Part shown: one piece after another, positions 15,891 to 57,284 of the stretch
How the letters are laid out: each line of letters begins with the position of its first letter
Position numbering within the stretch: the first letter of the stretch is position 1
NCBI GenBank assembly: GCA_965222935.1
Contig: CBDCVA010000002.1
Coordinates: forward strand, 1,798,001-1,862,000
Reading direction: 5' to 3'
From: CBDCVA01 sp965222935 [NCBI: Candidatus Latescibacterota bacterium]
Lineage (GTDB): Bacteria > Latescibacterota > CBDCVA01
DNA length: 64,000 nt
Program-made: the position numbers and the translations under genes
Notes under the pieces: model-generated
The model's input: only the letters and a program-made list of their open reading frames with translations
Databases searched by the model: none
What the model was told of the DNA's origin: nothing

Positions 15891-15934
15891 CGGAGTGAGC
15901 CTTGCCTCCCTCCTTGCCGGTTGATGAGGCTTCC

Positions 15935-21062: not shown

Positions 21063-21145
21063 ATCTACTTTTTTGCAAGTCCGGCTTCGGGTGGGCGAGG
21101 TAACGCTGCGTCTATGGCGCGGTCCGCCTAGGGGGTGTGCGTTTC

Positions 21146-22444: not shown

Positions 22445-22549
22445 TCGCGACGGAAGCACCCGTCCGCCGGTGAAGGCCGGGAAAGGCGTAGGACACGCTA
22501 TGATCCCCGATCACCAGTGCGGCGCTGTCCGGTCCGAGAACGGACGAGC

Positions 22550-30108: not shown

Positions 30109-32217
30109 CTATCCCGTTCCCGGGCCTAGGGGGTAGAGGAGGACGTCTACGATCAGCGGAATGCCCTCGCCGACGAAGTAACCGCAGATCATGCCATAGA
30201 AGAAGGGCTTGCTCCGCTCGTAGAGCCGGATGCCGCCGATCTGGAGCACGATCATCTTGATCAGCCATGCGAGGAAAGCGCTGAGCAGCAGCCAATCCAC
30301 CGGCCACGCCGACGCGACGGCCAACCCGACCGGGTGCAGGGGCCACCACGCGAAGCGGTAGCGCAGGAACGTGAGGATCCCCATCTCCGTCGCGCCCAGA
30401 CCGAAAAACCCGATCCGCTTCCAGTCTGGGCCTTCGGGCTCCTTGATCCGTGCCACGACATCCTCGAATGAGACGAGGCCCCCTGTGCGATAGGTCCACG
30501 AGCCGAAGTTGTAGGCACCCTGGTCGTAGGAGATGATCAGGATGTAGCCGATGGCCGTGACGAAGCCCACGGCCGCCGAGACGAAGATGGCGAGAGGCAC
30601 CGCTCGCGTGGCGCGCCGGATACGCTCGGATAGCTTCATGATATTGGCCGCCGCGGGCATGAAGACGGCCTGGACATCACCGTGCCAGGAGTACTGGAAG
30701 CCCATGGCGATCAGGCTCTTGGGGGACATGTGCGTTCCACCCAGCAGGGTCATGGTGAAGGGCTCCGCGATCATCGGCGGGACGAAGTAGTACAGCCCGA
30801 CCTGTGCGACGATCCGCGACAGGCCAAGGTAGATGATGAATATCGCGGGCACGAACACCGCGATGACGTGGGCCTCCATGCCCGCGTGCGATAGCCAAGC
30901 GCTGAAGAAGACCACGCCCCCGAGAAGCCCCCACACGGCCGTACGGTAGCTGAGCGGTTCCCCCGAATCGTCCAGGTCGGGCTCACCGCCGAATGCCTTG
31001 CGGACGACCCGCGCCAGGTGCGCCCGTGCCATCCATACGCTGAAACCCACCATGAAGAAGAACGCCCCGGCGCTTTGCCACGAAGAGGCGGCCACCGACC
31101 AGACGAACACGCCCGTGTCGCCGATGGAAAACCCGATTCGGTTGTACATGCCCTCCTGAAGCACCACGAGCAGCCGGAAGACCCAGACGCTGGCGAGGAC
31201 GTCCAGGTGGGCCAGATATGAGAAACCCATCGCGGGCAAACAGAGCCACAGACGGATCGTCGGGAAACCCTTGCCGACGGTGAGCGAGCCCATCACGGGA
31301 ATCTCGGGGAACGCCGGGAAGAAGAAGTGAGCCCAGTTCCAGTACAGGATGAAAGCCCCGACGGCGAAGCCCGTCCAGAATAGGCCGCTGCGCATGAAGG
31401 CCGGCATCTTACGAGAGCTTCCGGATTCGCGCACCATCTCGCGCGGAAACTCCATTAGGGGAAAGGTCAGGCGCTCGTGCTCGGCCCACTGGCGACGGAA
31501 GATGGCGGCCAGGCAGAAGCACATGAAGTAGAACGCTCCGATCAACGCTAGCCACCAGAAAAGCGGCGCCAGCCACGCGCGCCAGGGGATCGTTGCCCAG
31601 GGCGGCAAGCCCTCGTAGAACCAGGCCATTTCATCGTGGGCGTTGGTGGGCGTCATCCAGGCTTCGATGTAGGGATGGAAGTGCCTGGCCCACTCGTTCT
31701 CGACCGAGGCGAAGTAGTAGGGCGAGCTGATGATCGCTAGGAAAAACCCGATCAGGAAGAGGGGGATGGTGATACCGACCAGGCCCATGGTGAACACGAT
31801 GATCAGTTCACCGGGCCGCAGCGCGAGCCGAGGGCTCAAGAGCTTCAGCAAGGGGTTGAGGATGGCCACGCAGCACAGAAATGGGAACATCACGCCCATC
31901 GGCAAGAAGGTGCGCGTGATCTCGCTGCGGATCAGCTCGGCGGTCTGGTAGCGCCACAGCGCCGCCGGCGCAGCGACGTTGATCAGGACGGAGAAGCCTG
32001 CGCCTAAAAGCAACGCCCGCCAGGTGAGACCTGTGAGCGCTTGGGGTGTTGGCGCGGCATGGGGTGGCGCCTGGGGGTGGTGGACGCTCTGATTGCAGGG
32101 GTCCGTGGGTTTACTCCTCGTGAGGGTTCGAGTCCCCCTCCGGCACCAACTCAGGGCTCGGGCCTTTATGTGACGGCATGTTAAGGCCGACCAGTCCGTC
32201 CTCCAAGACCGGTTCAC
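30109..32217 (-). CDS. DUF6785/DUF6784-type polytopic membrane protein, copy 3 (5' end altered)
   Basis: A multi-spanning protein closest to copy 1: LTWRALLLGAGFSVLINV, RSEITRTFLPMG, WFYEGLPPW, FRRQWAEHERLTFPLME, YYFVPPMIAEPF, RFAWWPLHPVG, ending PLGPGTG. Family similarity begins only around residue 61 (about 32040). Upstream the same frame runs, without any usable internal start, antisense through a tRNA-Leu relic (32069-32148) to a GTG at 32217. So either translation starts far upstream with a ~60-residue tail of no known kind (CRRGTRTLTRSKPTDPCNQS is antisense tRNA), or the gene has lost its own start through rearrangement. The transporter body itself is intact. Confidence 0.7.
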   Translation of the reverse strand: MNRSWRTDWSALTCRHIKARALSWCRRGTRTLTRSKPTDPCNQSVHHPQAPPHAAPTPQALTGLTWRALLLGAGFSVLINVAAPAALWRYQTAELIRSEITRTFLPMGVMFPFLCCVAILNPLLKLLSPRLALRPGELIIVFTMGLVGITIPLFLIGFFLAIISSPYYFASVENEWARHFHPYIEAWMTPTNAHDEMAWFYEGLPPWATIPWRAWLAPLFWWLALIGAFYFMCFCLAAIFRRQWAEHERLTFPLMEFPREMVRESGSSRKMPAFMRSGLFWTGFAVGAFILYWNWAHFFFPAFPEIPVMGSLTVGKGFPTIRLWLCLPAMGFSYLAHLDVLASVWVFRLLVVLQEGMYNRIGFSIGDTGVFVWSVAASSWQSAGAFFFMVGFSVWMARAHLARVVRKAFGGEPDLDDSGEPLSYRTAVWGLLGGVVFFSAWLSHAGMEAHVIAVFVPAIFIIYLGLSRIVAQVGLYYFVPPMIAEPFTMTLLGGTHMSPKSLIAMGFQYSWHGDVQAVFMPAAANIMKLSERIRRATRAVPLAIFVSAAVGFVTAIGYILIISYDQGAYNFGSWTYRTGGLVSFEDVVARIKEPEGPDWKRIGFFGLGATEMGILTFLRYRFAWWPLHPVGLAVASAWPVDWLLLSAFLAWLIKMIVLQIGGIRLYERSKPFFYGMICGYFVGEGIPLIVDVLLYPLGPGTG
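32069..32148 (+). pseudogene. tRNA-Leu-like relic
   Basis: The 3' part reads GAGGGTTCGAGTCCCCCTCC then GGCACCA: T-arm, acceptor 3' strand and CCA end of a long-variable-arm tRNA, preceded by a possible variable arm (GTGGGTTTACTCCTCGTG). The 5' part (GCCTGGGGGTGGTGG) could pair with the acceptor with one mismatch. However, the D-arm lacks about ten bases, the anticodon stem CTCTG/CAGGG encloses only four bases, and the T-stem side is one base short. It is therefore not a functional tRNA. It overlaps the 5' end of the membrane protein gene on the other strand. Confidence 0.55.
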
Positions 32218-38687: not shown

Positions 38688-39626
38688 ATGATGAGCAAAG
38701 GCAAATGGATCGTAGCGCTGGCCGTCGTTGTGCTGGCTTCGGCCGTCGCGGCCAACATGGCGAGCGCTCGGAATGATTTCCACTGGGAAACCCCGAAGCT
38801 GCCTGCCGGCACGGCGGTGACCATCGACGGTGATCCGTCCGAGTGGATGGATTTTGCATGGAGCGACGGTGTATGGGACTGGGAACGCGTCGCAGCCTCG
38901 TCTTGGTACGGCCCCGAAGGGGTCTCGAAACCTCCGGCAGCTACGGGCCCGGACGAGGGCGCAGAAGCCGGGACCCCCGACGACTTCTCGGTCGAGACCT
39001 TCGCCGCCTGGGACGATGATGCGGTCTACTTCGCCTTCGTTGTGACTGACAACATCTGGGATGTTCACAGCGTCGGTGAAAGCAACTCTTTCGCGAACTC
39101 GGACGTCGCGTGCATCGTCATCGATGCCAAAGGCGGCTTTGGCCGCACGACCGAGGAAAGCGGCTACAGAAACGCGGGTATCGCAAGCTGGTGGTGGCGC
39201 GCCGGTGAGGGTTCTACCGACGGTACCGCTGATGATTTGAAGCGCCGCATCAGCCATACCGTGGGAGAGACCGCTCAGTACTTCGGCGAAGATGTCCCAG
39301 AGGCCCAAGGGAGGACGGTCGTCGATCCCGTTGGCACCTCGCCCAACGCCTTGGGCGGGAGCTGGGTGTTTGAGGGCAAGCTCACGTGGCAGGGCATCAT
39401 CGACAATACAGAGGAAACGTGGGCTTCTCCGTTCGAGGGACGTGAGATGGGCTGGATATTTTTCGCGATCGACGCGGACGGCGCCCAGGGTGACAGCTTT
39501 TTCTTCCTCTATGGTGGCGCGCCGACCAGTGATGCGGAAAACTACAGTTGGACGACCTTCGTCCTCGGCGAGGATGTGGCCGTCGAGACAACGAGCTGGG
39601 GCCAGGTCAAGCAACTCTTCAAGTAA
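38688..39626 (+). CDS. Secreted CBM9-like protein with C-terminal W-x-Q-x-K-Q-L-F motif, copy 2
   Basis: A 312-residue exported protein: signal peptide MMSKGKWIVALAVVVLASAV then AANMASA, shared almost residue for residue with copies 3 and 4. Mature marks are DGDPSEWMDFAWSDGVWDWE, FAAWDDDAVYFAFVVTDNIWD, VPEAQGRTVVDPVG and GREMGWIFFAIDADGA, ending AVETTSWGQVKQLFK. The start context AGAGGGATATGATG is identical to that of copy 3; the second ATG (38691) is better spaced from GAGGG. It faces the DUF6785/6784 gene at 39810 with a shared-type terminator between. Its ligand is unknown. Confidence 0.75.
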   Translation: MMSKGKWIVALAVVVLASAVAANMASARNDFHWETPKLPAGTAVTIDGDPSEWMDFAWSDGVWDWERVAASSWYGPEGVSKPPAATGPDEGAEAGTPDDFSVETFAAWDDDAVYFAFVVTDNIWDVHSVGESNSFANSDVACIVIDAKGGFGRTTEESGYRNAGIASWWWRAGEGSTDGTADDLKRRISHTVGETAQYFGEDVPEAQGRTVVDPVGTSPNALGGSWVFEGKLTWQGIIDNTEETWASPFEGREMGWIFFAIDADGAQGDSFFFLYGGAPTSDAENYSWTTFVLGEDVAVETTSWGQVKQLFK

Positions 39627-39647
39627 GTTTCACGGACCCAGCATCCC

Positions 39648-39692
39648 GAGAAGGCCGGGGGTCTCGTTCTGAGATCTCCGGCCTTCTCATTT
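39648..39692 (+). terminator. Terminator after CBM9-like copy 2
   Basis: An eleven-base perfect stem GAGAAGGCCGG (39648-39658) / CCGGCCTTCTC (39678-39688), then ATTTG. The bases before it (TTTCACGGACCCAGCATCCC) and the stem are repeated after copies 3 and 4. Confidence 0.7.
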
Positions 39693-39809
39693 GCGCCTCG
39701 CCCGCGCTACCTGCGGCGACCCGCATAAACGCTGCTGTGCTCCGGGTGGACTGGACCGGGCTGACGATCGGAGATTTTCCCTCGGCTGCCGAGGTGAGGG
39801 TCCTGACCG

Positions 39810-41828
39810 TTAATGCCGAAGGAAAACGCTTGGATAAGTGGTGGACCCTTCTCCCGGATACAAGATGAGGCTGGCGATGATGTAGAGCATGGCCCCTGCG
39901 ATTTGGCCGGCCACGAGCCCGATGAAGAAGGGCTTTCCCCGCTCGTAGAGCGACTGACCGCCGATCTTGATGAGGATCACTTTGGCGAGCCACGTGAGGA
40001 AGAAGGGGCCTAGGTGGCCGCCCATCCCCGACGCGAGCGGACAGGTCAGGCCGATGGGGTGAAGCGGCCACCAGGGGAAGCGGTGGCGTACGAAGATCAA
40101 TAAGCCCGTCACGGCTGCACCCAAGCCCATGAACCCCAGCCTTAGAGGGTCGGGACCGCTCGGGTCTCTGATTTTCGCGGTGATGTAATCGAAAGCGAAG
40201 CCACCCTGATACACCCACGTCACGAAATTGTGAGCCCCGGTGCGGTAGGCCGAATCAATATAGTACCACAGCGCCACCGGGAGGGCGACCGCGAGGCTGA
40301 GGACCGTGGCGATTACGATGACCCGGCCGTTCATCCTCAGCAAGTCGGCGAGCTTGGCGCCGTGCGCGATGGCGGGCACGATGACGGACCACAGGTTCGT
40401 GATCCAGCCGAAGGAGAACGCGATCCCCACCATGCTTGAGGTGGACATGTTGGCTGATCCCAAGGTGTGCATCGCGAACATCTGTGCCATCAACGGCGGC
40501 TTGGCGTAGGGCAGGCCGCTTTCGATGACGAGCCGCGTGGTCCCGAAGTAGGCCAGGACGGCTGCGGGCAGAAAGAGCGCGATCAAAGGGGCCGACATGC
40601 CCGTCCGGGCCGTGAAAGTGACCATGTACACGAGGCCTAAGACGAGGCAGACGACGGCGAGGCGAGGCGACATCAGTTCACGCTCATCGCCCTGTGTCCG
40701 GAGCCCCCGCCAGGCGTGGCGAAAGACGTAGGCCAGGTGGTGGCGTGCGGCCCAGACGCCGTAGAGGATGAAGACACTGAAAGCCCCCCACGATTGCCAA
40801 CTCAAAGAAACGTAGTTGGGAACGCCGGACCCTCCGAACCCGCCGAGCTCGCTGGTGCCGATCGCGAAGCCGATGCGGGTGAACAGAGCTTGCTGCATGC
40901 GGATCAAAATCTGGAAGAACCAGAAGCTGAACAGGACTTCGGGGTTGACGAAGTAGCACAGCCCGATGAGCCAGGGCTGCGCCGTGATGAAGATGCGTGG
41001 GAAGGTCCTGCCGAAGTTGACGGGTCCGCCGAACTGGATGCGGGGGAGTCCCGGCTTGAGCAACGTCGCCACATTCCAGACGAAGATACCGAAGACCAGA
41101 AAGAAGCCCACGAGGAAGGCTGGCTTCTTGGTGATGGCGGGTAGAAGCGTGCGCGAGTCGCTGTCCTCCATCAGCGCCATGGGCGTGTTCATCAAGGGGA
41201 AGAGCAACCGCTCGTTCTCCACCCACTGCTTGCGGAACAGTGCCACCAGCGCGATGCAGACCAGAAAGAAAGCCATCACGAAACTGCACCACCACAGTAG
41301 CGACGGGAGCCACGCGGCCCAGGGAATGCCCTCGCCCAGAGGCAAGCCCTCGTAGAACCACGTGATGGCCTTGCCTGTGTCGTCGGGCGCCATCCAGCTC
41401 AGGATATCGTCCAGGAAGAGGTCGGCCCATTCGTTCTCGGGCGAGGCGTAATAGCGTGGCGCCGCCAGCATGGCGACCAGGAACAGCACCAGGCTTCCGC
41501 CTGAGACCACCGCGACGAGCGCCATGACGAAGATCACGACGATCTCCTGGGGCCGCAGCGCCCAGGAGGGGTTGGCGAGCTTGAAGGCTACATTGACGAT
41601 GAAGACGAAGAAGAACAGCAGCATGATCGGGAGCCAGGGGAAATAGCCGAGATCCATCCCGTGGATGTTATGCCCATAACTGATGAACGGGTAGAGGATG
41701 GCGCTGCCGCCCGCCGACAGGATGCCCAGAACCACTGCGCGCACCGTGAGACCGGAGGCGGCGAGACCGAGCCGGCGTTCCGGCTGGGCCGCTTCTTCGG
41801 GCTTTAGGGCTTCTCGCTCAAAGGCCAC
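39810..41828 (-). CDS. DUF6785/DUF6784-type polytopic membrane protein, copy 4
   Basis: A 672-residue membrane protein highly similar to copies 5 and 6 (LTVRAVVLGILSAGGSAILY at the N-terminus, LFLDDILSWMAPDDTGKAIT, WFYEGLPLGEGIPWAAWLPS, FRKQWVENERLLFPLMNTPM, RFPWWPLHPIGLTCP). The start is a GTG with AAGGAG upstream, and N-terminal residues 1-25 (MAFEREALKPEEAAQPERRL) are Glu-rich and variable between copies. It lies 122 bases downstream of copy 5 on the same strand and may be read from the same transcript. The stop is separated from the CBM9-like copy 2 by the shared-type terminator. Confidence 0.82.
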   Translation of the reverse strand: MAFEREALKPEEAAQPERRLGLAASGLTVRAVVLGILSAGGSAILYPFISYGHNIHGMDLGYFPWLPIMLLFFFVFIVNVAFKLANPSWALRPQEIVVIFVMALVAVVSGGSLVLFLVAMLAAPRYYASPENEWADLFLDDILSWMAPDDTGKAITWFYEGLPLGEGIPWAAWLPSLLWWCSFVMAFFLVCIALVALFRKQWVENERLLFPLMNTPMALMEDSDSRTLLPAITKKPAFLVGFFLVFGIFVWNVATLLKPGLPRIQFGGPVNFGRTFPRIFITAQPWLIGLCYFVNPEVLFSFWFFQILIRMQQALFTRIGFAIGTSELGGFGGSGVPNYVSLSWQSWGAFSVFILYGVWAARHHLAYVFRHAWRGLRTQGDERELMSPRLAVVCLVLGLVYMVTFTARTGMSAPLIALFLPAAVLAYFGTTRLVIESGLPYAKPPLMAQMFAMHTLGSANMSTSSMVGIAFSFGWITNLWSVIVPAIAHGAKLADLLRMNGRVIVIATVLSLAVALPVALWYYIDSAYRTGAHNFVTWVYQGGFAFDYITAKIRDPSGPDPLRLGFMGLGAAVTGLLIFVRHRFPWWPLHPIGLTCPLASGMGGHLGPFFLTWLAKVILIKIGGQSLYERGKPFFIGLVAGQIAGAMLYIIASLILYPGEGSTTYPSVFLRH

Positions 41829-41950
41829 GGCGATGCTCCTTGGCTCAATATGGGCTCACGCGAAGGCTCCGCGTCTGCCGCGATCATGATAATGAAAGGT
41901 ACGGCGCGCGGCCCCGGCAAGATGCGTCGAGCTTGGGGAGAGCACCGCCT

Positions 41951-43960
41951 TCAGTAATACCGGGGCGGTGAGAGGTACCCTTCTCCCGGATACAGGACGA
42001 GGTTGGCGATGACGTAGAGCAAAGCCCCTGCGATGTGGCCGACCACGAGCCCGATGAAGAAGGGCTTGCCCCGCTCGTAGAGCGACTGACCGCCGATTTT
42101 GATGAGGATCACCTTGGCGAGCCACGTGAGGAAGAAAGAGCCCAAATGGCCGACCATCCCCGGCACGAGCGGGCAGGTGAGGCCGATGGGATGAAGCGGC
42201 CACCATGAGAAGCGGTGGCGTGCGAAGATCAATAAGCCCGTCAGGGTCGCGCCCAAGCCCATGAAACTTAGCCTTGGAAGGTCGGGACCGCGTGGCCCCC
42301 TGATATTCGCGGTGATGTAATCGAAAGCGAAGCCGCCCTGATACACCCACGTCGAGAAATTGTGAGCCCCAGTGTGGTAGGCGGAGTAGAGGTAGTACCA
42401 CAGCGCCACCGGAAGGGCGACCGCGATGCCGAGGATCGTGGCGATCACGATGACCCGCCCGTTCATCCTCAGCAAGTCAGCGAGCTTGGCGCCGTGCGCG
42501 GCGGCGGGCATGAAGGCGGACCATAGGTTCGTGATCCAGCCGAAGGAGAACGCGATCCCCACCATGCTCGGGTTCGACATGCCGGCTGATCCCAGGGTGT
42601 GCATCGTGAACAACTGCGCCATCAACGGCGGCTTGACGTAGGGCAGACCGCTTTCGATGACGAGCCGCGTGGTCCCGAAGTAGGCCAGGATGACCGCGGG
42701 CAGAAAGAGCACGATCACAGGAGCCGACATGCCTGTCCGCGCCATGAAAGCGGCGACGTACACCACGCCTAAGACGAGGCAAGCCACGGCGAGGCGAGGC
42801 GACATCAGTTCACGTTCATCGCTCTGTGTCCGGAGCCCCCGCCAGGCGCGGCGGAAGACGTCGGCCAGATGATGTCTCCCGGCCCAGACACCGTAGAGGA
42901 TGAACAGGCTGAAAGCGCCGTACGACTGCCAGATCACAGAAACGTACCTGGGAACGCCGGCTGGTCCGAACCCGCCGAGCTCGCTGGTGCCGATCGAGAA
43001 GCCGATGCGGGTGAACAGAGCTTGCTCAAAGCGGATCAGAAGCTGGAAAAACCAGAAGCTGAACAGGACTTCGGGGTTGACGAAGTAGCACAGTCCGATG
43101 ATCCAGGGCGTGGCGGCGATGAAGATGCGCGGGAAGGTCCTGCCGAAGTTGACGGCTCCGCCGAAATGGATGAGCGGAAGCCCTGGCTTGAGGAACGTCA
43201 CCACGTTCCAGGCGAGCATGCCGAAGATGAGAAGGAAGCCCACGAGGAAGGCCGGCTTCTTGGTGATGGCGGGCAGAAGCTTCGGCGAGGCGCTGTCCTC
43301 CATCAGCGCCATGGGGGTGCTCATCAAGGGGAAGAGCAGCCGCTCGTTCTCCACCCACTGCTTGCGGAACAGCGCCACTAGCGCAATGCAGATCAAATAG
43401 ACGGCCATCACGAAGGTGCACCACCACAACAGCGACGGAAGCCACGCCGCCCAGGGGATGATCTCGCCCAGAGGCAGGCCCTCGTAGAACCACGTGATGG
43501 CCTTGCCCGTATCCTCAGGGGCCATCCAACTCAGGATATCGTCCAGGAAGAGATCGGCCCATTCGTTCTCGGGCGAGGCGTAGTAGCGTGGGGACGCCAG
43601 CGTGGCGATCAGGAACAGCAACAGGCTCCCGCCTGAGACCACCGCGACGAGCGCCATGATGAAGATCACGACGATCTCCTGGGGCCGCAGCGCCCACGCG
43701 CGGTTGGCGAGCTTGAAGGCTACGTTGACGACGAAGACGAAGAAGAACAGCATGAGGACCGGACCCCAGGGAAAGTGGCCCATGCCCATTCCGTGGATGT
43801 TGTTTCCTTGGCTGAGAAACGGGTAGAGGACGGCGCCGCCGCCCGCCGACAGGATGCCCAGAACCACCGCGCGCACCGTGAGACCGGAGGCGGCGAGGCC
43901 GCGCCGCCGTTCCGGGCGGGCGGCTTCTGCGGTTCGCGGGGCGGTCTCTTCGGAGGCCAC
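41951..43960 (-). CDS. DUF6785/DUF6784-type polytopic membrane protein, copy 5
   Basis: A 669-residue protein that aligns with copies 4 and 6 over its whole length. Differences are concentrated in the N-terminal tail, in the loop around residue 305-315 (ELGGFGPAGVPRYVSV) and in the C-terminus (GEGYLSPPRYY). I start it at the GTG at 43960 (VASEETAPRT), which has GGGAGGAG upstream and lines up with the GTG of copy 6; the frame is open to 44047. It follows the CBM9-like copy 3 gene on the same strand. A terminator-like hairpin lies between them, so expression may be partly uncoupled. Confidence 0.82.
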   Translation of the reverse strand: MASEETAPRTAEAARPERRRGLAASGLTVRAVVLGILSAGGGAVLYPFLSQGNNIHGMGMGHFPWGPVLMLFFFVFVVNVAFKLANRAWALRPQEIVVIFIMALVAVVSGGSLLLFLIATLASPRYYASPENEWADLFLDDILSWMAPEDTGKAITWFYEGLPLGEIIPWAAWLPSLLWWCTFVMAVYLICIALVALFRKQWVENERLLFPLMSTPMALMEDSASPKLLPAITKKPAFLVGFLLIFGMLAWNVVTFLKPGLPLIHFGGAVNFGRTFPRIFIAATPWIIGLCYFVNPEVLFSFWFFQLLIRFEQALFTRIGFSIGTSELGGFGPAGVPRYVSVIWQSYGAFSLFILYGVWAGRHHLADVFRRAWRGLRTQSDERELMSPRLAVACLVLGVVYVAAFMARTGMSAPVIVLFLPAVILAYFGTTRLVIESGLPYVKPPLMAQLFTMHTLGSAGMSNPSMVGIAFSFGWITNLWSAFMPAAAHGAKLADLLRMNGRVIVIATILGIAVALPVALWYYLYSAYHTGAHNFSTWVYQGGFAFDYITANIRGPRGPDLPRLSFMGLGATLTGLLIFARHRFSWWPLHPIGLTCPLVPGMVGHLGSFFLTWLAKVILIKIGGQSLYERGKPFFIGLVVGHIAGALLYVIANLVLYPGEGYLSPPRYY

Positions 43961-44129
43961 GGTGGGGCTCCTCCCGGCGGCATCGCCGTCAGGTGCTGTA
44001 CCGATGCACTGGACGAGGGGTCCTGCGCATGTACGCCCCCGGTCCACCCCCTGTCAAGCGCGGTTCAGTACGGGAGCCCGTACCGTCGCACGGCTTTGAG
44101 CCTTCCGGGGTCGCTGGTTAGGGGGCAGA

Positions 44130-44175
44130 AAGAATGAGAAGGCCGGGGATCTCGACGAGCCCCCCCGGCCTTCTC
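44130..44175 (-). terminator. Terminator-like hairpin after CBM9-like copy 3
   Basis: On the minus strand GAGAAGGCCGG / CCGGCCTTCTC (44175-44165 with 44146-44136), followed by ATTCTTTCT. Same stem as after copy 2. It sits between the secreted-protein gene and the membrane-protein gene, so it could attenuate rather than end transcription. Confidence 0.6.
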
Positions 44176-44196
44176 GGGATGCTGGGTCCGTGAAAC

Positions 44197-45144
44197 CTAC
44201 TTGAAGAGCTGCTTGACCTGGCCCCAGCTCGATGTCTCGACGGCCACCTCTTCGCCGACGAAAGTCGTCCAACTGCTGCTTGCCGGAGCGCCGTCGTTCG
44301 AGTCGTGAGCGATGTAGAAGATGGCTTCAGAGCCGGCGCCATCCGCATCCCATATGAACCACGCCCAGCCCATCTCTTTATCTTCGTACGGAGGTAGGAA
44401 CGGCGGGTCTGTGGTAGAGAGGTAGCCCTCCCATGTAATCCTGGCTTCAAACATCCAGTCCCCGCCCAAGGCGTCGGGATGGGCTCCGACGGGATCGACG
44501 ATCGTCCGCCCAAGGGCCTCGGGGACATCGTTGCCGAAGTACTGCTGGGACCCCTGTTGCACTCCCTCCTTGGGAGGCCAGGAGATGCGGCGCTTAACAT
44601 CTTGACCCGCGATGGACTCTGGAAGCTCGCCGCTCGTAGTACCGGCGAGAAACCAGTAGCTTGCGTAGCCTGCCGTTTGTTGCGTTCCGGAGCCTCCTTT
44701 GGTATCGAGGAAGACGCACGCGATGTCCCCGCCGGCGAAGCTCGGGCTGTCCGGTTGGCTATAGTTGTCAAAGATGTTGTCGGTCACCGAATAGGCGAAG
44801 ACGATCCCCTCATCGTCCCACGCGGACCAGAACTCAACCGAGAAGTCGTCGTCGCTCCCGGCTTCTGTGCCCTCCATCTCGCCCGTCGGTCTCGGAGATG
44901 AACTGATCCCCTCGGGGTTGTACCAGGGCTGGGCTTGGATGCGTTCCCAGGTCCATACACCGTCGGTCCATGCAAAATCCATCCACTCGGACGGATCACC
45001 GTCGATCGTCACCGCCATGCCGGCGGGCAGCTTCGGGGTGTCCCAGGTCTCACTATCAAGCCGAGCGCTCGCCACGTTGACCGCGACGGCCGAAGCCAGC
45101 ACGACGACGGCCAGTGCTGCAATCCATTTTCCTTTGTTCATCAT
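44197..45144 (-). CDS. Secreted CBM9-like protein with C-terminal W-x-Q-x-K-Q-L-F motif, copy 3
   Basis: A 315-residue exported protein: signal peptide MMNKGKWIAALAVVVLASAV then AVNVASA, followed by LPAGMAVTIDGDPSEWMDFA, FWSAWDDEGIVFAYSVTDNIF, VPEALGRTIVDPVGAHPDAL and AWFIWDADGAG, with C-terminus AVETSSWGQVKQLFK. It is closest to copy 4 (a little over half of residues identical by eye), although the DNA upstream of the two genes is nearly identical. The same AGAGGGATATGATG start context as copy 2 is present. Copy 5 of the membrane protein follows on the same strand. Confidence 0.75.
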   Translation of the reverse strand: MMNKGKWIAALAVVVLASAVAVNVASARLDSETWDTPKLPAGMAVTIDGDPSEWMDFAWTDGVWTWERIQAQPWYNPEGISSSPRPTGEMEGTEAGSDDDFSVEFWSAWDDEGIVFAYSVTDNIFDNYSQPDSPSFAGGDIACVFLDTKGGSGTQQTAGYASYWFLAGTTSGELPESIAGQDVKRRISWPPKEGVQQGSQQYFGNDVPEALGRTIVDPVGAHPDALGGDWMFEARITWEGYLSTTDPPFLPPYEDKEMGWAWFIWDADGAGSEAIFYIAHDSNDGAPASSSWTTFVGEEVAVETSSWGQVKQLFK

Positions 45145-45173
45145 ATCCCTCTACTGGAGTGACTAGAGCCTGT

Positions 45174-45740
45174 GCTCGTTTCTGCCTGAGGGGTCCGGCG
45201 CACCCTGCATGAATTCACCTCTCCCCCTTTCACAACGCCGGGTTCAATCTCCCTTCGAGGCGAAGGGAAACTAATCTTTGTAAAGAAGTATAATCAATTC
45301 TTTCGCGTCTCACAACCCCTTGTTACTAGCGGCCGGTGCGATGGACGGAGGTCTGGCCTCCTCTCCAGCGCGCTCGGACACTGTCCCGGCTGGATGCTTG
45401 TACCACCCCGGGTCGTCGTAGGTTGCGATTTCATCTCGCACCTTGAGGACGGTGAACATCCCGCCCATCCCGATGGAGCCGAACGGTCCATCGCCGCCCA
45501 TCATGGGCAGGGTGTTCGGCGGCCCCTCCATGCGCATCTCCGTCATCTCGTGCATGCCTCTCCCGCCCATGGCCATGTAGGCCGGGAGAAGGGCTCGGAT
45601 CCTGCCTTCCACTTCCTCCTGGTTGACGCCGAGCATGTTCGGGGTGTCGTGGCCCATCGCATTCATGGGGTGGTGGCGGCGGTGACAGTGGAGCGCCCAG
45701 TCGCCCGGCGCAGCGACGAACTCGATGTCGCGTGTCTGGC
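45174..45740. repeat. 567 bp duplication, left copy (98% identical to 49073-49639)
   Basis: Aligns without gaps to 49073-49639 (constant offset 3899) with about a dozen mismatches by eye. It contains the region upstream of the CBM9-like gene and the 3' end of the multicopper oxidase gene. The right edge (TGTCTGGC at 45733-45740) changes abruptly to sequence like 41881 onwards. Confidence 0.9.
45310..45740 (-). pseudogene. 3' fragment of the multicopper oxidase gene
   Basis: About 143 codons that match the C-terminus of the oxidase encoded at 49209-50474: the last copper motif ALHCHRRHHPMNAMGHD, EGRIRALLPAYMAMG, a Met-rich stretch and the end SIAPAASNKGL. Within the last 118 residues only three differ. 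The N-terminal two thirds are missing, cut at 45740, so it cannot form a cupredoxin oxidase. It keeps an open frame, which suggests a recent origin or gene conversion from the intact copy. Confidence 0.85.
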
Positions 45741-45741
45741 G

Positions 45742-45935
45742 CGATCATGATAATGAAAGGTACGGCGCGCGGACCCGGCAAGATGCGTCGAGCTTCGGGA
45801 TGGTGTCGCCTTCAGCAGAACGGGGGCGGCGATCGGAGATTTTCTCTCGGCCACCGAGGTGAAAGTCCTGACCGTTAATAACGAAGACGCCAACTTGGAT
45901 AAGCGGTGTACCCTACTCCCGGATACAAAATGAGG
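45742..45935. repeat. Mosaic junction: segment like 41881-41970 joined to segment like 39763-39870
   Basis: CGATCATGATAATGAAAGGT and the ~35 bases after it match 41881 onwards with one mismatch. From about 45831 the sequence (CGATCGGAGATTTT, CCGAGGTGA, GTCCTGACCGTTAAT) instead matches 39767 onwards, downstream of membrane-protein copy 4. The 3' flank of copy 6 is thus a patchwork of the flanks of copies 5 and 4. Confidence 0.7.
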
Positions 45936-47878
45936 CTGGCGATGATGTAGAGCGCAGCTCCTGCGAGGTGGCCGACCACGAGCCCGATGAAAAAGGGCTT
46001 GCCCCGCTCGTAGAGCGACTGACCGCCGATCTTGATGAGGATCACCTTGGTGAGCCAGGTCAGGAAGAAGGGGCCCAAATGGGCGACCATCCCCGCCGCG
46101 AGCGGACAGGTGAGGCCGATGGGGTGAAGCGGCCACCAGGGGAAACGGTGGCGCGCGAAGATCAACAAGCCCGTCACGGCCGCGCCGAAGCCCATGAAAC
46201 CCAGCCTTTGAGGGTCGGGACCGCTCGGGTCTCTGATTTTCGCGGTGATGTAATCGTAGGCGAAGCCACCCTGATACACCCACGTCGCGAAGTTGTGAGC
46301 TCCAGTGTGGTAGGCGGAGTAGATGTAGTACCACAGCGCCACTGGGAGGGCGACCGCGATGCCGATGATCGCGGCGATGACGATGACCCGACCGTTCATC
46401 CCCAGCCAGTCCGCGAGCTTGGCGCCGTGCGCGGTGGCGGGTATGAAGAGGGACCACAGGTGCGTGATCCAGCCGAACGAGAACGCAATGCCTACCATGG
46501 AGGGCGCCGACATGCCGGCTGATCCCAGCGTGTGCATCGTGAACGGCTGCGGGAGCATGGGTGCCTTGACGTAGGGCAGGCCGCTTTCGATGGCGAGCCG
46601 CGCGGTCCCGAAGTAGGCCAGGATGGCTGCGGGCAAAAAGAGCACGATCACAAGGGCCGACATGCCCGTCCGGGCCATGAAAGCGGCCACGTACACGAGG
46701 CCTAAGGCGAGGCATAAGACGGCGAGGCGCGGCGACATCAACTCACGTTCATCGCCCTCCGTCCGGAGCCCCCGCCACGCGCGGTGGAAGACATCAGCCA
46801 GATGGTGGCGCCCGGCCCAGACACCGCAGAGTATGAAGACGCTGAAAGCGCCCCACGATTGCCAGGTCAAAGAAGCGTAGCCCCCATTAAACCCGCCGAG
46901 CTCGTCGACGCCAGCCGAGTAGCCGATGCGGGTGAACAGAGCTTGCTGGGTGCGGACCAAAATCTGGAAGAACCAGAAGCTGAACAGGACTTCGGGATTG
47001 ACGAAGTAGCACAGTCCGATGACCCAGGGCGTAACGGCGATGAAGATGCGGGGGAAGGTCCTGCCGAAGTTGACTGGCCCGCCGAACCGGATGAGGGGGA
47101 GCCCCGGCTTGAGAAACGTCGCCACGTTCCAGGCGAGCATGCCGAAGATCAAAAAGAAGCCCACGAGGAAGGCCGGATTCTTGGTGATGGCGGGCAGAAG
47201 CCTCGGCGAGGCGCTGTCCTCCATCAACGCCATGGGCGTGTTCATCAAGGGGAAGAGCAGCCGCTCGTTCTCCACCCACTGCTTGCGGAACAGCGCCACC
47301 AGTGCAATGCAGATCAGAAAGAAAGCCATCAGAAAACTGCCCCACCACAACAGCGACGGGAGCCACGCGGCCCAGGGGATGGCCTCACCCAGAGGTAAAC
47401 CCTCGTAGAACCAGGTGATGGCCTTGCCCGTGTCCTCAGGTGCCATCCAGCCCAGGATATCGTCCAGGAAGAGGTCGGCCCATTCGTTCTCGGGCGACGC
47501 GTAGTAGCGTGGTGCCCCCAGCGTGGCGACCAGGAACAGCACCATGCCCACGTCCGCGACCACCGCAACGAGCGCCATGATGAAGATCACGACGATCTCC
47601 TGGGGTCGGAGCGCCCATGCGGGGTTGGCGAGCTTGAGGGCTACGTTGATGACGAAAACGAAGAAGAACAGCAACATGACCGCGAGCCAGGGGAAGTAGC
47701 CATGACCCATCCCGTGGATGTTGCTCTGCATAAGGAACGGGTAGAGCATGGCGCTGGAGGCTGCCGCCAGAATGCCCAGAACCACCGCGCGCACCGTGAG
47801 ACCGGAGGCGCCGAGACCGCGTGGACGCTCTCGCTGGGCGGCTTCTTGGGTCGGTGGGACGGTCTCTTCGGAGGCCAC
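45875..47878 (-). CDS. DUF6785/DUF6784-type polytopic membrane protein, copy 6
   Basis: A 667-residue protein closely similar to copies 4 and 5 (FLDDILGWMAPEDTGKAITW, FRKQWVENERLLFPLMNTPM, RFPWWPLHPIGLTCPLAAG). It has its own version of the loop near residue 300 (SAGVDELGGFNGGYASL, four residues shorter than the others). Its C-terminus, LILYPGVGYTAYPSWRLRY, resembles that of copy 4, in agreement with the mosaic 3' flank. The GTG start has GGAGGAG upstream. It follows CBM9-like copy 4 on the same strand, with a hairpin between. Confidence 0.82.
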   Translation of the reverse strand: MASEETVPPTQEAAQRERPRGLGASGLTVRAVVLGILAAASSAMLYPFLMQSNIHGMGHGYFPWLAVMLLFFFVFVINVALKLANPAWALRPQEIVVIFIMALVAVVADVGMVLFLVATLGAPRYYASPENEWADLFLDDILGWMAPEDTGKAITWFYEGLPLGEAIPWAAWLPSLLWWGSFLMAFFLICIALVALFRKQWVENERLLFPLMNTPMALMEDSASPRLLPAITKNPAFLVGFFLIFGMLAWNVATFLKPGLPLIRFGGPVNFGRTFPRIFIAVTPWVIGLCYFVNPEVLFSFWFFQILVRTQQALFTRIGYSAGVDELGGFNGGYASLTWQSWGAFSVFILCGVWAGRHHLADVFHRAWRGLRTEGDERELMSPRLAVLCLALGLVYVAAFMARTGMSALVIVLFLPAAILAYFGTARLAIESGLPYVKAPMLPQPFTMHTLGSAGMSAPSMVGIAFSFGWITHLWSLFIPATAHGAKLADWLGMNGRVIVIAAIIGIAVALPVALWYYIYSAYHTGAHNFATWVYQGGFAYDYITAKIRDPSGPDPQRLGFMGFGAAVTGLLIFARHRFPWWPLHPIGLTCPLAAGMVAHLGPFFLTWLTKVILIKIGGQSLYERGKPFFIGLVVGHLAGAALYIIASLILYPGVGYTAYPSWRLRY

Positions 47879-48044
47879 GCCGGGCTCCTCCTGGCACCAT
47901 CGCCGTCAGACGCTGTGAATGCTCTGGACGAGGGTCCTGCGCATGTACGCCCCCGGCCCGCGCTCTGTCAAGCGTGGTTGATGCAGAAAACCTGAACTGC
48001 CCTGGAACTCCGGCACGGTCAGGGGCTCGGCGGGCCAGAAATGC

Positions 48045-48079
48045 GAAGGCCGGAGACCTCGACGAGACCCCCGGCCTTC
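48045..48079 (-). terminator. Terminator-like hairpin after CBM9-like copy 4
   Basis: On the minus strand a nine-base stem GAAGGCCGG / CCGGCCTTC (48079-48071 with 48053-48045) followed by GCATTTCTG; weaker T-run than after copy 2. The preceding bases GTTTCACGGACCCAGCGTCC match those after copies 2 and 3. Confidence 0.55.
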
Positions 48080-48101
48080 CGGGACGCTGGGTCCGTGAAA
48101 C

Positions 48102-49040
48102 CTACTTGAAGAGCTGCTTGATCTCGCCCCAGCTCGTGTTCTCGACCGCTATCTCACCCTCGGCGGGGCCTAAGGTCGTCCAGCCGCTGAATTCCGGCTG
48201 GGCGTTGGCCGCGCTGTGACGGATCATCCATGTGCCCTCACGGCCCGCGCCGTCGTGATCTGAATGGAACCACGCCCAGCCCAACTCACGTCCCTCGAAC
48301 GGAGGCACCCAACTGGGGTCCCGGGCAGTGGGGCCATCCCATGTAACCCTGGCCTCTAACACCCAGTTCCCGCCCAAGGCGTCGGGATGGGCTCCAACGG
48401 GGTCGACGACCGACATCGCGAAGGACTCGGGGACATCGGCGAAGAAGAACTGCGCGGTATTCTCACCCACTACGTTCGGGGAGATGCGGCGCACAATATC
48501 TCCTCGACCTGAGAGGGCTCCTGGATTGTCGCTGTCCGCGGTACCGGCGCGCCAGCGGTAGTCTGCGAAGCCCAACTGCGTTATGTCGCCAAAGCCGCCG
48601 TTGGTCTGGATGAAGAGGTCAGGGGCATCTCCCCCGATGAATGCCCCGGAGCCGGCGCTGTGATTGTCAAAGATGTTGTCGGTCACAAGGAAGGCGACGT
48701 AGATCCCTTCATCGTCCCACGCGGAGAAGTACTCGACCGAGAGGTCATCATCGGTCCCGGCTTCTGAGCCCTCCAACTCGCCCGTCGCGCTCGGAGCGGT
48801 AGTGAACCCCTCGGGGTTGTACCAGGGCTGCTGTGTCAGGCGCGCATGGGTCCATACACCGTCGGTATACGCGAAGTCCATCCACTCGGACGGATCACCG
48901 TCGATGACCGGTGTCAGGCCGGCGGGCAGCTTCGGAGTGGACCACGTCTCACTCTCAAGCCTAGCGCTCGCCATGTTGGCCACCACCGCCGAAGCGAGTA
49001 TGACGACGGCCAACGCTACGATCCATTTACCCTTCTGCAT
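48102..49040 (-). CDS. Secreted CBM9-like protein with C-terminal W-x-Q-x-K-Q-L-F motif, copy 4
   Basis: A 312-residue exported protein. The ATG at 49040 begins the signal peptide MQKGKWIVALAVVILASAVV (then ANMASA) and has GAGGTGG upstream; the frame is open to 49109 without export signal. Marks: VIDGDPSEWMDFAYTDGVWT, YFSAWDDEGIYVAFLVTDNIF, VDPVGAHPDALGGNWVLEAR, GRELGWAWFHSDHDGAG, end AVENTSWGEIKQLFK. The central part (FGDITQLGFADYRWRAG, FFFADVPESFAMS) differs strongly from copy 3, so ligand specificity could differ. Membrane-protein copy 6 follows on the same strand. Confidence 0.75.
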   Translation of the reverse strand: MQKGKWIVALAVVILASAVVANMASARLESETWSTPKLPAGLTPVIDGDPSEWMDFAYTDGVWTHARLTQQPWYNPEGFTTAPSATGELEGSEAGTDDDLSVEYFSAWDDEGIYVAFLVTDNIFDNHSAGSGAFIGGDAPDLFIQTNGGFGDITQLGFADYRWRAGTADSDNPGALSGRGDIVRRISPNVVGENTAQFFFADVPESFAMSVVDPVGAHPDALGGNWVLEARVTWDGPTARDPSWVPPFEGRELGWAWFHSDHDGAGREGTWMIRHSAANAQPEFSGWTTLGPAEGEIAVENTSWGEIKQLFK

Positions 49041-49072
49041 GATCCACCTCGCTGGTGTAACTACGATAATGC

Positions 49073-49639
49073 GCTCGTTTCTGCTTGAAGGGTCCGGCGC
49101 ACCCTGCATGAATTCACCTCTCCCCCTTTCACAACGCCGGGTTCAATCTCCCTTCGAGGCGAAGGGAAACTAATCTTTGTAAAGAAGTATAATCAATTCT
49201 TTCGCGTCTCACAACCCCTTGTTACTAGCGGCCGGTGCGATGGACGGAGGTCTGGCCTCCTCTCCAGCGCGCTCGGACACTGTCCCGGCTGGATGCTTGT
49301 ACCACCCCGGGTCGTCGTAGGTTGCGATATCGTCTCGCACCTTGAGGACGGTGAACATCCCGCCCATCCCGATGGAGCCGAACGGTCCATCGCCGCCCAT
49401 CATGGGCAGGGTGTTCGGCGGCCCCTCCATGCGCATCTCCGTCATCTCGTGCATGCCCCTCTCGCCCATGGCCATGTAGGCCGGGAGAAGCGCTCGGATC
49501 CTGCCTTCCACCTCCGTCTGGTTGACGCCGAGCATGTTCGGGGTGTCGTGGCCCATCGCATTCATCGGGTGGTGGCGGCGGTGACAGTGGAGCGCCCAGT
49601 CGCCCGGCGCAGCGACGAACTCGATGTCGCGCGTCTGGC
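49073..49639. repeat. 567 bp duplication, right copy
   Basis: Partner of 45174-45740. Here the segment is in its original context: it continues without a break into the intact multicopper oxidase gene. Confidence 0.9.
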
Positions 49640-50474
49640 CCGGCGCGACCATCACCGTTGTTGTGGGCCACTGCGCCGAGAGAGGAATATCGCCGCCATC
49701 GGTCGCGACGATATTGAACGAATGGCCGTGCAGGTGGATCGGGTGAGCCTCCTGCGCGACGTTGCCGAACCGAATGCGTACGCGCCCCCCCGTACGCGCA
49801 ACGAGCGGTGCCGTGCCCGGAAAGGCCCGGCTGTTGAAGGTGAAAATGTTGAAATCCGTCATGACGCTCGGGTTCGGCGTAGATGTGCCGGGATCGACGA
49901 ACCATTCGCTCAGGAAGATGGCGAAATCCCGATCTATTTTCCGCTCGCGCTCTTTGGGGTGGATGATGAAGAAGCCCATCGCTCCCAGGCCGATTTGGGT
50001 CATCTCGTCCCCGTGGGAGTGGTACATCTGGGTGCCGTGTTGACGGAGTGTGAACTCATAGGCAAAAGTCTCTCCGGGAGGGATGCCTCGCTGGGTCAAA
50101 CCTTGGACGCCGTCCATGCCGCTGGGGAGGAGGAGTCCGTGCCAGTGGACTGCGGTGGATTCGGGGAGCTTGTTGGTCACGTAGATCCGGACCCGGTCGC
50201 CCTCGACCGCTTCGATGGTTGGCCCCGGCGTCCGACCGTTGTAGCCCCAGGCCTTGATGAGCATCCCGGGGGCGGTTTCCCAGGTGATCTCCTCGACGAC
50301 CAGGCGGAACTCCTTCACCCCATCCACCATTTTCCAGGGCAGTGTGCTGCCGTTGGGCGTCACGACTGGTGTGTAAGAGGGCTGAGGCTCGCCCATCGCG
50401 CGCTGCTGGCCCATGATCGCCAGCAGGCTAACGACCAGAACGGCGACGCCAGATGCCTCGAAATGTCTGCTCAT
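49209..50474 (-). CDS. Exported multicopper oxidase
   Basis: A 421-residue protein with an N-terminal export segment (AVLVVSLLAIMGQQRAMG) and the four copper motifs of laccase-type oxidases: HWHGLLLPSG (~residue 110), MYHSHGDE (~155), HPIHLHGHSF (~255) and LHCHRRHHPMNAMG (~310). In the last one the type-1 copper would be held by the Cys, the two flanking His and possibly a Met. A Met/His-rich C-terminal part (MHEMTEMRMEGPPN, LPMMGGDG) resembles copper-resistance oxidases of the CopA/CueO kind. It would oxidise Cu(I) or phenolics in the periplasm. The start ATG overlaps the stop of the TolC-like gene (ATGA), indicating translational coupling. Its 3' part is duplicated at 45310. Confidence 0.88.
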   Translation of the reverse strand: MSRHFEASGVAVLVVSLLAIMGQQRAMGEPQPSYTPVVTPNGSTLPWKMVDGVKEFRLVVEEITWETAPGMLIKAWGYNGRTPGPTIEAVEGDRVRIYVTNKLPESTAVHWHGLLLPSGMDGVQGLTQRGIPPGETFAYEFTLRQHGTQMYHSHGDEMTQIGLGAMGFFIIHPKERERKIDRDFAIFLSEWFVDPGTSTPNPSVMTDFNIFTFNSRAFPGTAPLVARTGGRVRIRFGNVAQEAHPIHLHGHSFNIVATDGGDIPLSAQWPTTTVMVAPGQTRDIEFVAAPGDWALHCHRRHHPMNAMGHDTPNMLGVNQTEVEGRIRALLPAYMAMGERGMHEMTEMRMEGPPNTLPMMGGDGPFGSIGMGGMFTVLKVRDDIATYDDPGWYKHPAGTVSERAGEEARPPSIAPAASNKGL

Positions 50475-57205: not shown

Positions 57206-57284
57206 GGGTGGAGCTCCCTCCCGTCACGGTTGGGGTGCGGCGCCATCCTCGGATGAACCCAGGAGGGCGGGTGCGTATGGATAC

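What the first reader, a model, noticed from the sequence alone, without database searches (positions are those of the whole stretch)
38688..49040. Array of paired secreted CBM9-like proteins and DUF6785/6784 membrane proteins: candidate undescribed capture-and-transport system
Four secreted CBM9-like proteins and six DUF6785/6784 membrane proteins occur in this window. Every CBM9-like gene is next to a membrane-protein gene: 25531/26525 and 38688/39810 convergent, 44197/41951 and 48102/45875 co-directional. The secreted partners are more divergent than the membrane partners. That is what one expects if exported binding proteins of differing specificity feed similar permeases. I know no described system of this composition. 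Two membrane copies (741, 30109) have no partner and form a separate subgroup.
Basis: partly seen in the sequence, partly recalled or inferred. Interest (0 to 1): 0.85.

Follow-up and report, generated by a model that had tools for sequence, protein, structure and literature searches.

The report
Secreted CBM9 proteins with OPT-like transporters
A bacterium from a little-known group carries repeated pairs of an exported sugar-binding-like protein and a membrane protein predicted to be shaped like a known family of importers; related bacteria keep the same link in many gene clusters, which points to an undescribed way of capturing and taking up nutrients.

Summary
In detail: six DUF6785/DUF6784 genes and four secreted CBM9-like genes, each CBM9-like gene 92-227 bp from a DUF6785 gene. 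The 38.7-49 kb trio, however, is one pair tandemly duplicated.

The membrane family has the OPT transporter fold by prediction: a confident model (pLDDT 87) matches barley YS1 (Z 22.9; next protein 5.5), and profile comparison with OPT proteins agrees, with clean controls. It does not match Pfam OPT itself.

The link is not only local. In two single-contig Latescibacteria chromosomes 34 of 69 CBM9-family genes lie within 10 kb of DUF6785 (10.1 expected; sulfatase control at chance). In four other genomes the two genes overlap or are 5 bp apart.

It is looser than "pairs". Two chromosomes with 49 and 35 DUF6785 matches lack full-length CBM9-family genes. The CBM9 family is tied more tightly to a ~900-aa family without Pfam match, and 57 of 72 examined members carry a C-terminal SWGxIK-like tail. 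Best reading: multi-copy capture clusters with OPT-fold importers. Ligand, hand-over and tail function are untested.

The parts
25531..26439 (+). secreted CBM9-like protein (302 aa) with C-terminal tail VETTNWSQIKQLFR; keeps the Trp pair common in the family (QQWWLKD)
26525..28534 (-). DUF6785/DUF6784 membrane protein, OPT fold by family; convergent neighbour of 25531
38688..39626 (+). secreted CBM9-like protein (312 aa), inverted copy of the trio; lacks the family Trp pair
39810..41828 (-). DUF6785/DUF6784 membrane protein; the one modelled (pLDDT 87.1, pTM 0.88)
41951..44047 (-). DUF6785/DUF6784 membrane protein, tandem copy, 82% identical to 39810
44197..45144 (-). secreted CBM9-like protein (315 aa), about 150 bp upstream of 41951 on the same strand
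45313..45666 (-). 118-aa ORF repeating the C-terminus of the multicopper oxidase: marks the edge of the duplicated unit (partial copy)
45875..47878 (-). DUF6785/DUF6784 membrane protein, tandem copy, 81-82% identical to the other two
48102..49040 (-). secreted CBM9-like protein (start inferred from paralogues; ORF opens at 49109), about 225 bp upstream of 45875
49209..50474 (-). intact multicopper oxidase; its C-terminal part lies in the duplicated unit
22517..25261 (+). 'Y' family protein, 914 aa; 0 of 38 family members match Pfam; directly upstream of the CBM9-like gene 25531; the CBM9 family's strongest genomic partner among those tested
21137..22444 (+). DUF4159 protein; relatives lie within a few genes of tail-bearing CBM9 genes in L108-L111
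741..2765 (-). DUF6785/DUF6784 without CBM9 partner in the window
30109..32217 (-). DUF6785/DUF6784 without adjacent CBM9 partner; with 741 it falls in a 21-row set in which 12 rows are CBM9-linked (8 adjacent, 4 near, this gene counted as near)

Best explanation
These genes are copies of a nutrient capture-and-uptake module of Latescibacterota-type bacteria. The DUF6785/DUF6784 protein is an inner-membrane secondary importer with the OPT (oligopeptide/metal-chelate transporter) fold. The secreted CBM9-like protein is exported through its signal peptide and holds a carbohydrate or related ligand outside the inner membrane, at the cell surface or in the periplasm, and so raises the local supply of substrate to surface enzymes, outer-membrane proteins and finally the importer. 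In most related clusters it sits beside a ~900-aa family of unknown fold (Y) and discoidin/FlgD-type surface proteins (X), and the SWGxIK tail probably anchors it in that assembly. In the window the minimal pair (capture protein + importer) exists in three tandem copies and its binding domain diversified. Shown: families, predicted fold, duplication, statistical linkage, tail conservation. Inferred: location, ligand class, anchoring, import direction and co-operation.
For: OPT fold: model pLDDT 87, pTM 0.88; Foldseek E 6e-8 to HvYS1, first other protein 0.02; Z 22.9 over 548 residues at 3.8 A, first other protein 5.5; hhalign against 20 OPT proteins probability 97.1, E 5.6e-11, while nine controls (two ABC-permease families, one xanthine/uracil permease, reversed and five column-shuffled OPT) give probability at most 3.0. 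CBM9 fold by profile: T. maritima CBM9, E 3e-9, model positions 38-265 of 291. Linkage: 34 of 69 within 10 kb vs 10.1 expected, sulfatase control 10 vs 9.8. Operon-like spacing: 15 of 19 adjacent pairs (16 CBM9 genes, window included) co-directional; CBM9-to-DUF6785 gap 5, 5, 5 and -16 bp in four genomes. The window CBM9 proteins group with the tail-less CBM9 set (98/85); of 16 genomes with that set DUF6785 is directly adjacent in 5, within about 7 kb in 6, absent from the fetched DNA in 2 and not decidable in 3 (my count from the gene maps and positions). Both partners are intact in all three window copies. The trio's CBM9 genes would be expected to hold about 8-10 stops without constraint (240-284 differences x 3.4-3.9%) and hold none (rough).
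Against: DUF6785 does without the CBM9 family: 49 and 35 matches in two single-contig chromosomes with no full-length member; of 80 loci found through DUF6785 only 3 contain a CBM9-family gene. The stronger partner of the CBM9 family is Y, and DUF6785 itself is near Y (33 of 92 within 10 kb, 11.5 expected; but 3 of 92 within 2 kb, 4.5 expected), so the CBM9-DUF6785 link may be second-hand. With the broad Pfam CBM9_1 family the link was weak. Two of the four window pairs are convergent and cannot share a transcript. The trio lacks the Trp aligned to the T. maritima CBM9 region WEQDS, so sugar binding is doubtful there. The duplicated unit holds only the end of the oxidase, so the loss of the oxidase copy is no evidence that the pair was specially kept. 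No complex, localisation or ligand could be predicted: the CBM9 structure job gave pLDDT 35.
Confidence: 0.48

Rival explanations
1. The tail-bearing CBM9 protein is a part of a surface assembly with Y and X (adhesion, surface layer or a secretion-linked machine), and DUF6785 is merely a frequent importer whose genes gather in the same islands.
For: 52 of 69 CBM9-family genes within 10 kb of Y (8.5 expected) and DUF6785 itself near Y (33 of 92 within 10 kb, 11.5 expected). Y is absent, and full-length CBM9-family members are absent, from two chromosomes full of DUF6785. 48 of 57 tail-bearing but only 2 of 15 tail-less members have X or Y within five genes.
Against: The sulfatase control shows no general catabolic-island effect for the CBM9 family. 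The tail-less members with DUF6785 within five genes (7 of 15) have no X or Y there, and in four genomes they are 5 bp from or overlap DUF6785. No gene around the window trio resembles Y or X, and the pair was copied together.
Confidence: 0.32
2. One reading: the CBM9 protein is a true substrate-binding protein that docks on the periplasmic face of its own DUF6785 permease and hands over ligand, as in SBP-dependent secondary transporters.
For: Adjacent, sometimes 5-bp-spaced or overlapping genes; importer-type fold; the secreted protein evolves faster (dN/dS 0.71-0.85 vs 0.35), as expected for differing specificity.
Against: CBM9 is a rigid beta-sandwich, not a two-lobed binding protein (recalled); most DUF6785 genes have no such partner; no complex was modelled.
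Confidence: 0.12
3. Chance and local duplication: an accidental neighbour pair was tandemly copied and has no functional link.
For: The trio is one duplication series; a first test with the broad Pfam CBM9_1 family found 3 of 33 within 5 kb vs 2.71 expected.
Against: Linkage far above chance with the proper family; the adjacent state needs at least 7 changes on the DUF6785 tree and 5 on the CBM9 tree counted against 'near' rows only; closely spaced genes in other genomes.
Confidence: 0.08

Closest known systems
OPT/YSL transporters (Pfam PF03169; barley YS1, PDB 7wsr/7wst)
   Same: Predicted whole-length fold (Z 22.9 over 548 residues) and detectable profile similarity. YS1 is described as a proton-coupled elevator-like symporter (passages of PMC9691689 read).
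   Different: Window proteins match DUF6785+DUF6784 and not PF03169; 12-13% identity to YS1; 17-50 matches per genome in seven genomes; substrate and coupling unknown.
CBM9 of Thermotoga maritima xylanase A (PDB 1i82/1i8a/1i8u)
   Same: Family profile matches it over most of the domain.
   Different: Here a stand-alone secreted protein of about 310 aa, no enzyme attached; most examined members add a conserved C-terminal tail (57 of 72); the window trio lacks the Trp aligned to WEQDS.
Sus-like polysaccharide utilisation loci of Bacteroidota (recalled)
   Same: Many paralogous clusters per genome combining secreted glycan-binding-like proteins, large surface or outer-membrane candidates and importers.
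   Different: No Pfam match for Y (0 of 38), so no SusC/TonB-receptor signature; capture protein is CBM9 and rarely lipobox-bearing (2 of 86 by a crude motif); inner-membrane part is OPT-fold.
SBP-dependent secondary transporters, TRAP and TTT (recalled)
   Same: Would also pair an exported binding protein with a secondary permease.
   Different: No DctP- or TctC-type Pfam match in the secreted partner; the partner is a CBM9 beta-sandwich and the permease a single OPT-fold protein.
Type IX secretion C-terminal domains (CHU_C, FlgD_ig)
   Same: X proteins in the same clusters end in such domains.
   Different: The CBM9 tail is about 15 residues, VExxSWGxIKxxF, and no such domain was reported in the window CBM9 proteins.

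Membership tests
OPT transporter superfamily (DUF6785/6784 as a divergent branch) | OPT fold over the full membrane domain (predicted) | tested here: met
   Z 22.9, 548 aligned, rmsd 3.8, first other protein Z 5.5; Foldseek E 6e-8
OPT transporter superfamily (DUF6785/6784 as a divergent branch) | Sequence homology to OPT proteins by profile | tested here: met
   hhalign probability 97.1, E 5.6e-11 for one comparison, 438 columns; nine control comparisons at most 3.0%
OPT family proper (PF03169) | Match to the Pfam OPT model | tested here: not met
   All six window proteins hit PF20581/PF20580; no PF03169 match listed at E<=1
OPT family proper (PF03169) | Proton-coupled import of peptides or metal chelates | not testable with these tools
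   Needs transport assay
CBM9 | CBM9 domain by profile | tested here: met
   Family profile vs 1i82 E 3e-9; individually 1 of 4 window proteins over the Pfam cut-off
CBM9 | Aromatic binding residue in the WEQDS region | tested here: inconclusive
   Trp at that column in 25531 and in 22 of 44 aligned members, absent in the three trio members; role of the Trp recalled
CBM9 | Carbohydrate binding | not testable with these tools
   Needs binding assay
SBP-dependent secondary transporter (TRAP/TTT) | DctP/TctC-type binding protein beside the permease | tested here: not met
   Secreted partners have only CBM9_1 and one weak CBM_11 Pfam match at E<=1
Sus-like locus | SusC-type TonB receptor in the cluster | tested here: not met
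   0 of 38 Y proteins match any Pfam family at E<=0.01; other cluster genes not all scanned
Sus-like locus | Surface lipoprotein capture partner | tested here: not met
   Lipobox-like motif in 2 of 86 CBM9-family proteins (crude regular expression)

The most novel reading that the evidence does not exclude
A Sus-like capture-and-import system built from non-homologous parts, with about 30-40 CBM9 members per chromosome in part of the Latescibacterota (two chromosomes counted). CBM9 capture proteins are docked by a previously unnoticed C-terminal tag (VExxSWGxIKxxF) to an outer-membrane or surface protein of unknown fold (Y), and captured substrate is finally taken in by OPT-fold importers. The window shows a stripped-down form in which capture protein and importer alone were duplicated and diversified.
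Probability: 0.3. Interest if true: 0.82.

Novelty: new variant of a known kind. Interest (0 to 1): 0.63.

Why it matters
DUF6785 gives 17-50 matches per genome in the seven genomes counted, and I found no paper on it (searches for DUF6785 and DUF6784 in the held open-access library: 0 papers each; subscription papers and preprints are not covered). A predicted OPT fold makes it testable as an importer. Its linkage to a large family of secreted CBM9 proteins, a ~900-aa family with no Pfam match and a shared C-terminal tag outlines how these uncultured bacteria may feed. A published single-cell study of Latescibacteria lists symporters, ABC, PTS and TRAP systems; a word search of its main text found no 'CBM', and its oligopeptide passages concern ABC transporters and peptidases (PMC4454575, passages read).

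Tried and rejected
Broad Pfam CBM9_1 (plus four-sequence-profile hits) as the partner family: no enrichment within 5 kb (3 of 33 vs 2.71), weak within 10 kb (9 vs 4.72, p 0.035). The four-sequence profile A1 had missed many members (0 of 80 DUF6785 loci); iterating it on the fetched loci raised the set from 39 to 63 distinct proteins, and the proper family reversed the verdict. I report both.

No structure of Y, of the tail or of any complex was therefore made.

Relatives of the CBM9 proteins in viral contigs and plasmids: none confirmed. A search of 64 genomes with window protein 45875 at E<=1e-150 returned nothing; the threshold was strict and the tool says an empty answer shows nothing. No PDB sequence match for DUF6785 at E<=10; Y's best was E 0.23. 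NCBIfam: 0 of 44 CBM9-family members match at E<=0.001.

Pfam tally of co-directional neighbours of DUF6785 within 300 bp in L001-L080: of 120, 101 were at most 900 aa and I gave 99 to the call (two at locus edges left out); no dominant partner (at most 7 of 99: sulfatase, SGSH_C, PhyH, a methyltransferase), and CBM9_1 is not among the 25 families shown.

I considered gamma-glutamyl peptides as substrate because a gamma-glutamyltranspeptidase lies beside the DUF6785 pair in L102; not followed. The co-duplicated oxidase fragment was first taken as decay; the repeat ends inside the oxidase gene, so it may have been partial from the start, and I dropped that argument (confidence lowered from 0.50 to 0.48, first rival raised from 0.30 to 0.32).

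Rows dropped before counts: 7 partial CBM9-family matches (3 in G008, 4 in G013) and the G054 partial one; 1 sub-cut-off DUF6785 match; 1 short Y match; 2 sub-cut-off sulfatase matches. Split pieces of DUF6785, Y and sulfatase matches were joined. CBM9-family matches with one internal stop were kept. I copied the positions into the scripts.
Full report
WHAT IS THERE. The membrane proteins match DUF6785 plus DUF6784 very strongly. Of the secreted proteins only 25531 reaches Pfam's CBM9_1 cut-off; the other three are recognised through their similarity to it (35-38% identity) and through the wider family. All four share an N-terminal hydrophobic, signal-like stretch and the C-terminal VE(T/N)(T/S)(S/N)W(G/S)(Q/E)(I/V)KQLF(K/R).

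THE TRIO IS ONE DUPLICATION SERIES. Self-comparison shows 41975-45740 repeated at 45908-49639 (84% over 3.8 kb), covering DUF6785, the CBM9 gene and the C-terminal part of the multicopper oxidase; ORF 45313-45666 is the copy of that part. The third copy has DUF6785 (86-88%) and an inverted CBM9 gene. Within the same copies the CBM9 genes changed much faster (dN/dS 0.71-0.85 overall, 0.73-1.01 in the middle part) than DUF6785 (0.35) (Nei-Gojobori on three pairs each; YN00 gave 0.18-0.23 for DUF6785 and 0.65 for the one CBM9 pair it could handle whole). They are not decaying: with 240-284 differences and 3.4-3.9% of changes giving stops, about 8-10 stops would be expected without constraint, and none is seen (rough). 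Both partners are intact in all three copies. That fits joint function but does not prove it.

THE MEMBRANE FAMILY IS OPT-LIKE. An alignment of 91 members gave a confident model. Against solved structures the only matches at E<=0.001 are two chains of barley YS1, also far ahead by VIA-align. Sequence profiles agree: DUF6785/6784 against 20 OPT proteins found by PF03169 in other genomes gives probability 97.1 and E 5.6e-11 for a single comparison; MalG-like and MalF-like permease families, a xanthine/uracil permease, reversed OPT and five column-shuffled OPT alignments give at most 3.0. The six window proteins have no listed match to PF03169 itself, so I call the family OPT-fold and OPT-related, not an OPT member. 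YS1 is described as a proton-coupled elevator-like symporter (passages read, PMC9691689). Whether DUF6785 keeps that chemistry was not tested.

RELATIVES. No genome is held for the window. A scan with the six proteins returned 80 loci, most titled Latescibacterota, Gemmatimonadota or Gemmatimonadetes, with at most 37% identity for the best segment. The closest single match among the fetched loci is an 81%-identical gene in MAG KW1-S15_112 (window 2-568), so the window probably comes from the same broad group, from a lineage not in the collection (inference). 'Latescibacterota-type' below is my label for the phylum group that the tool returns for that MAG (64 genomes). Seven genomes of it carry 17-50 DUF6785 matches each.

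IS THE PAIRING REAL ELSEWHERE? First pass: of those 64 genomes, 26 have CBM9 relatives by the four-sequence profile, some weak. A set whose matches stop before the tail occurs in 16 of them. From the gene maps and the positions, DUF6785 is directly adjacent on the same strand in 5 (G003, G005, G007, G064, G065), within about 7 kb in 6 (G002, G004, G008, G013, G055, G061), absent from the fetched DNA in 2 (G059, G060) and not decidable in 3 (short contigs or contig ends, G056-G058). In G003, G007, G064 and G065 the CBM9 and DUF6785 reading frames overlap by 16 bp or are 5 bp apart, a sign of translational coupling. Among 19 adjacent pairs formed by 16 CBM9 genes (window included), 15 are co-directional, 2 divergent and 2 convergent; both convergent ones are in the window.

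WHOLE-CHROMOSOME TEST. With a 44-member profile (A5) two single-contig Latescibacteria chromosomes have 32 and 37 near-full-length members; two others have none (one has a partial match). All four carry DUF6785 (44, 50, 49 and 35 matches). Of 69 CBM9-family genes, 8, 18 and 34 lie within 2, 5 and 10 kb of DUF6785, against 3.2, 5.9 and 10.1 in 4000 circular shifts (p 0.017, 0.001, and 0 of 4000). A sulfatase control (89 genes) gives 2, 6 and 10 against 2.8, 5.6 and 9.8. The two chromosomes are related and many pairs look orthologous, so the p-values overstate independence. With the broad Pfam family instead, the link was at chance within 5 kb and weak within 10 kb. From the other side only 35 of 92 DUF6785 genes have a CBM9-family gene within 10 kb, and only 3 of 80 DUF6785-found loci contain one.

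A STRONGER PARTNER. In most tail-bearing loci the CBM9 gene is near large proteins. X (about 550-900 aa) has F5/8 type C (discoidin) and FlgD/CHU_C domains. Y (about 900 aa) has no Pfam match in 38 of 38 members and no significant PDB match; window 22517-25261, directly upstream of 25531, is the family's seed. On the two chromosomes 52 of 69 CBM9-family genes lie within 10 kb of Y (8.5 expected); Y has no match in the two chromosomes that lack full-length CBM9-family members. DUF6785 is also near Y within 10 kb (33 of 92, 11.5 expected) but not within 2 kb (3, 4.5 expected). Of 72 distinct CBM9-family proteins in loci with at least eight called genes, 48 of 57 tail-bearing but 2 of 15 tail-less members have X or Y within five genes (p 5e-7). 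These loci were chosen for CBM9 or DUF6785 (14 of the 20 regions for both), so the chromosome test is the fair one. Y's sequence looks beta-rich to my eye and might be a barrel; this is a guess.

THE TAIL. In 1431 distinct, uncut proteins called in the fetched loci the motif W[GS]x[IVLM]K lies within the last 20 residues in 53 cases and elsewhere 8 times. 46 of the 53 are CBM9-family; 4 of the other 7 are 150-165-aa proteins with signal-like N-termini from clusters that also hold a CBM9-family gene, ending TEVDESTWGKVKDLFK or close to it. The loci were picked for the CBM9 family, so these counts say nothing on genome-wide frequency. The profile match to the solved CBM9 ends before the tail. 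A tag shared by two secreted families suggests sorting or docking; it may also be a helix of a common ancestor module. Untested.

TREES. The four paired window DUF6785 genes form one supported set (99*), and 741 with 30109 another (100*), which joins a 21-row set in which 12 rows are CBM9-linked (95*; quick method, long branches warned). The window CBM9 proteins group with the tail-less set (98/85); ten of the 19 rows there are labelled unlinked, mostly because the copy used came from a locus with 1.5-kb flanks, and the place of 25531 inside is weak (87/20). Adjacency needs at least 7 changes on the DUF6785 tree and 5 on the CBM9 tree (the latter against 'near' rows only): the association formed or broke repeatedly.

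READING. I favour a capture-and-uptake module that in its commoner form includes Y and X and in the window's trio is reduced to capture protein and importer. Direct hand-over is possible but less likely. In the held library no paper mentions DUF6785 or DUF6784, or Latescibacterota together with CBM9. The one paper found with Poribacteria and CBM9 reports eight sponge metaproteome CBM9 proteins, mostly affiliated to Alteromonas and Bacteroides (passages read, PMC6081418).

Noticed in passing
L112:15805-16257, L113:15850-16302, L116:16930-17379, L117:16676-17170: A 150-165 aa protein with signal-like N-terminus, not found by the CBM9 profile, ends in the same STWGKVK tail and lies in the same cluster as a CBM9-family gene: a possible C-terminal sorting or docking tag shared by unrelated proteins.
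   Followed up: partly
window 22517-25261 and family members in G008, G013: Protein family of about 900 aa with no Pfam match and no significant PDB match, 41 and 47 copies in two chromosomes and none in two others; conserved Asp-rich stretch in the middle.
   Followed up: partly
G013:C1:3377603-3379099, G008:C1:5440085-5441587, G002:C403, G004:C96, G005:C136: DUF6785 inside an open frame of 2111-2145 aa in five genomes, apparently a conserved fusion with a much larger protein.
   Followed up: no
window 56408-58100: Two tandem NAD-epimerase genes (82% nt identity over 633 bp) whose relatives sit near the CBM9/DUF6785 genes and sugar ABC transporter genes in Latescibacterota-type genomes.
   Followed up: no
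window 15931-16073 and 19582-19722: 145-bp inverted repeat (80%) flanking the 1112-aa MFS/spermine-synthase/TPR gene 16202-19540.
   Followed up: no
L102:3577-5181: Gamma-glutamyltranspeptidase beside a DUF6785 pair in the CBM9 cluster; genes with a like C-terminal sequence stand in the like place in L101, L103, L104, L144 (not family-tested). A possible hint at peptide substrates.
   Followed up: no
window 2-568: Gene 81% identical to one in MAG KW1-S15_112 (L015:18934-19770), far above the best matches of the other window genes against the loci then held; nearest hint of the window's origin or a transferred gene.
   Followed up: no
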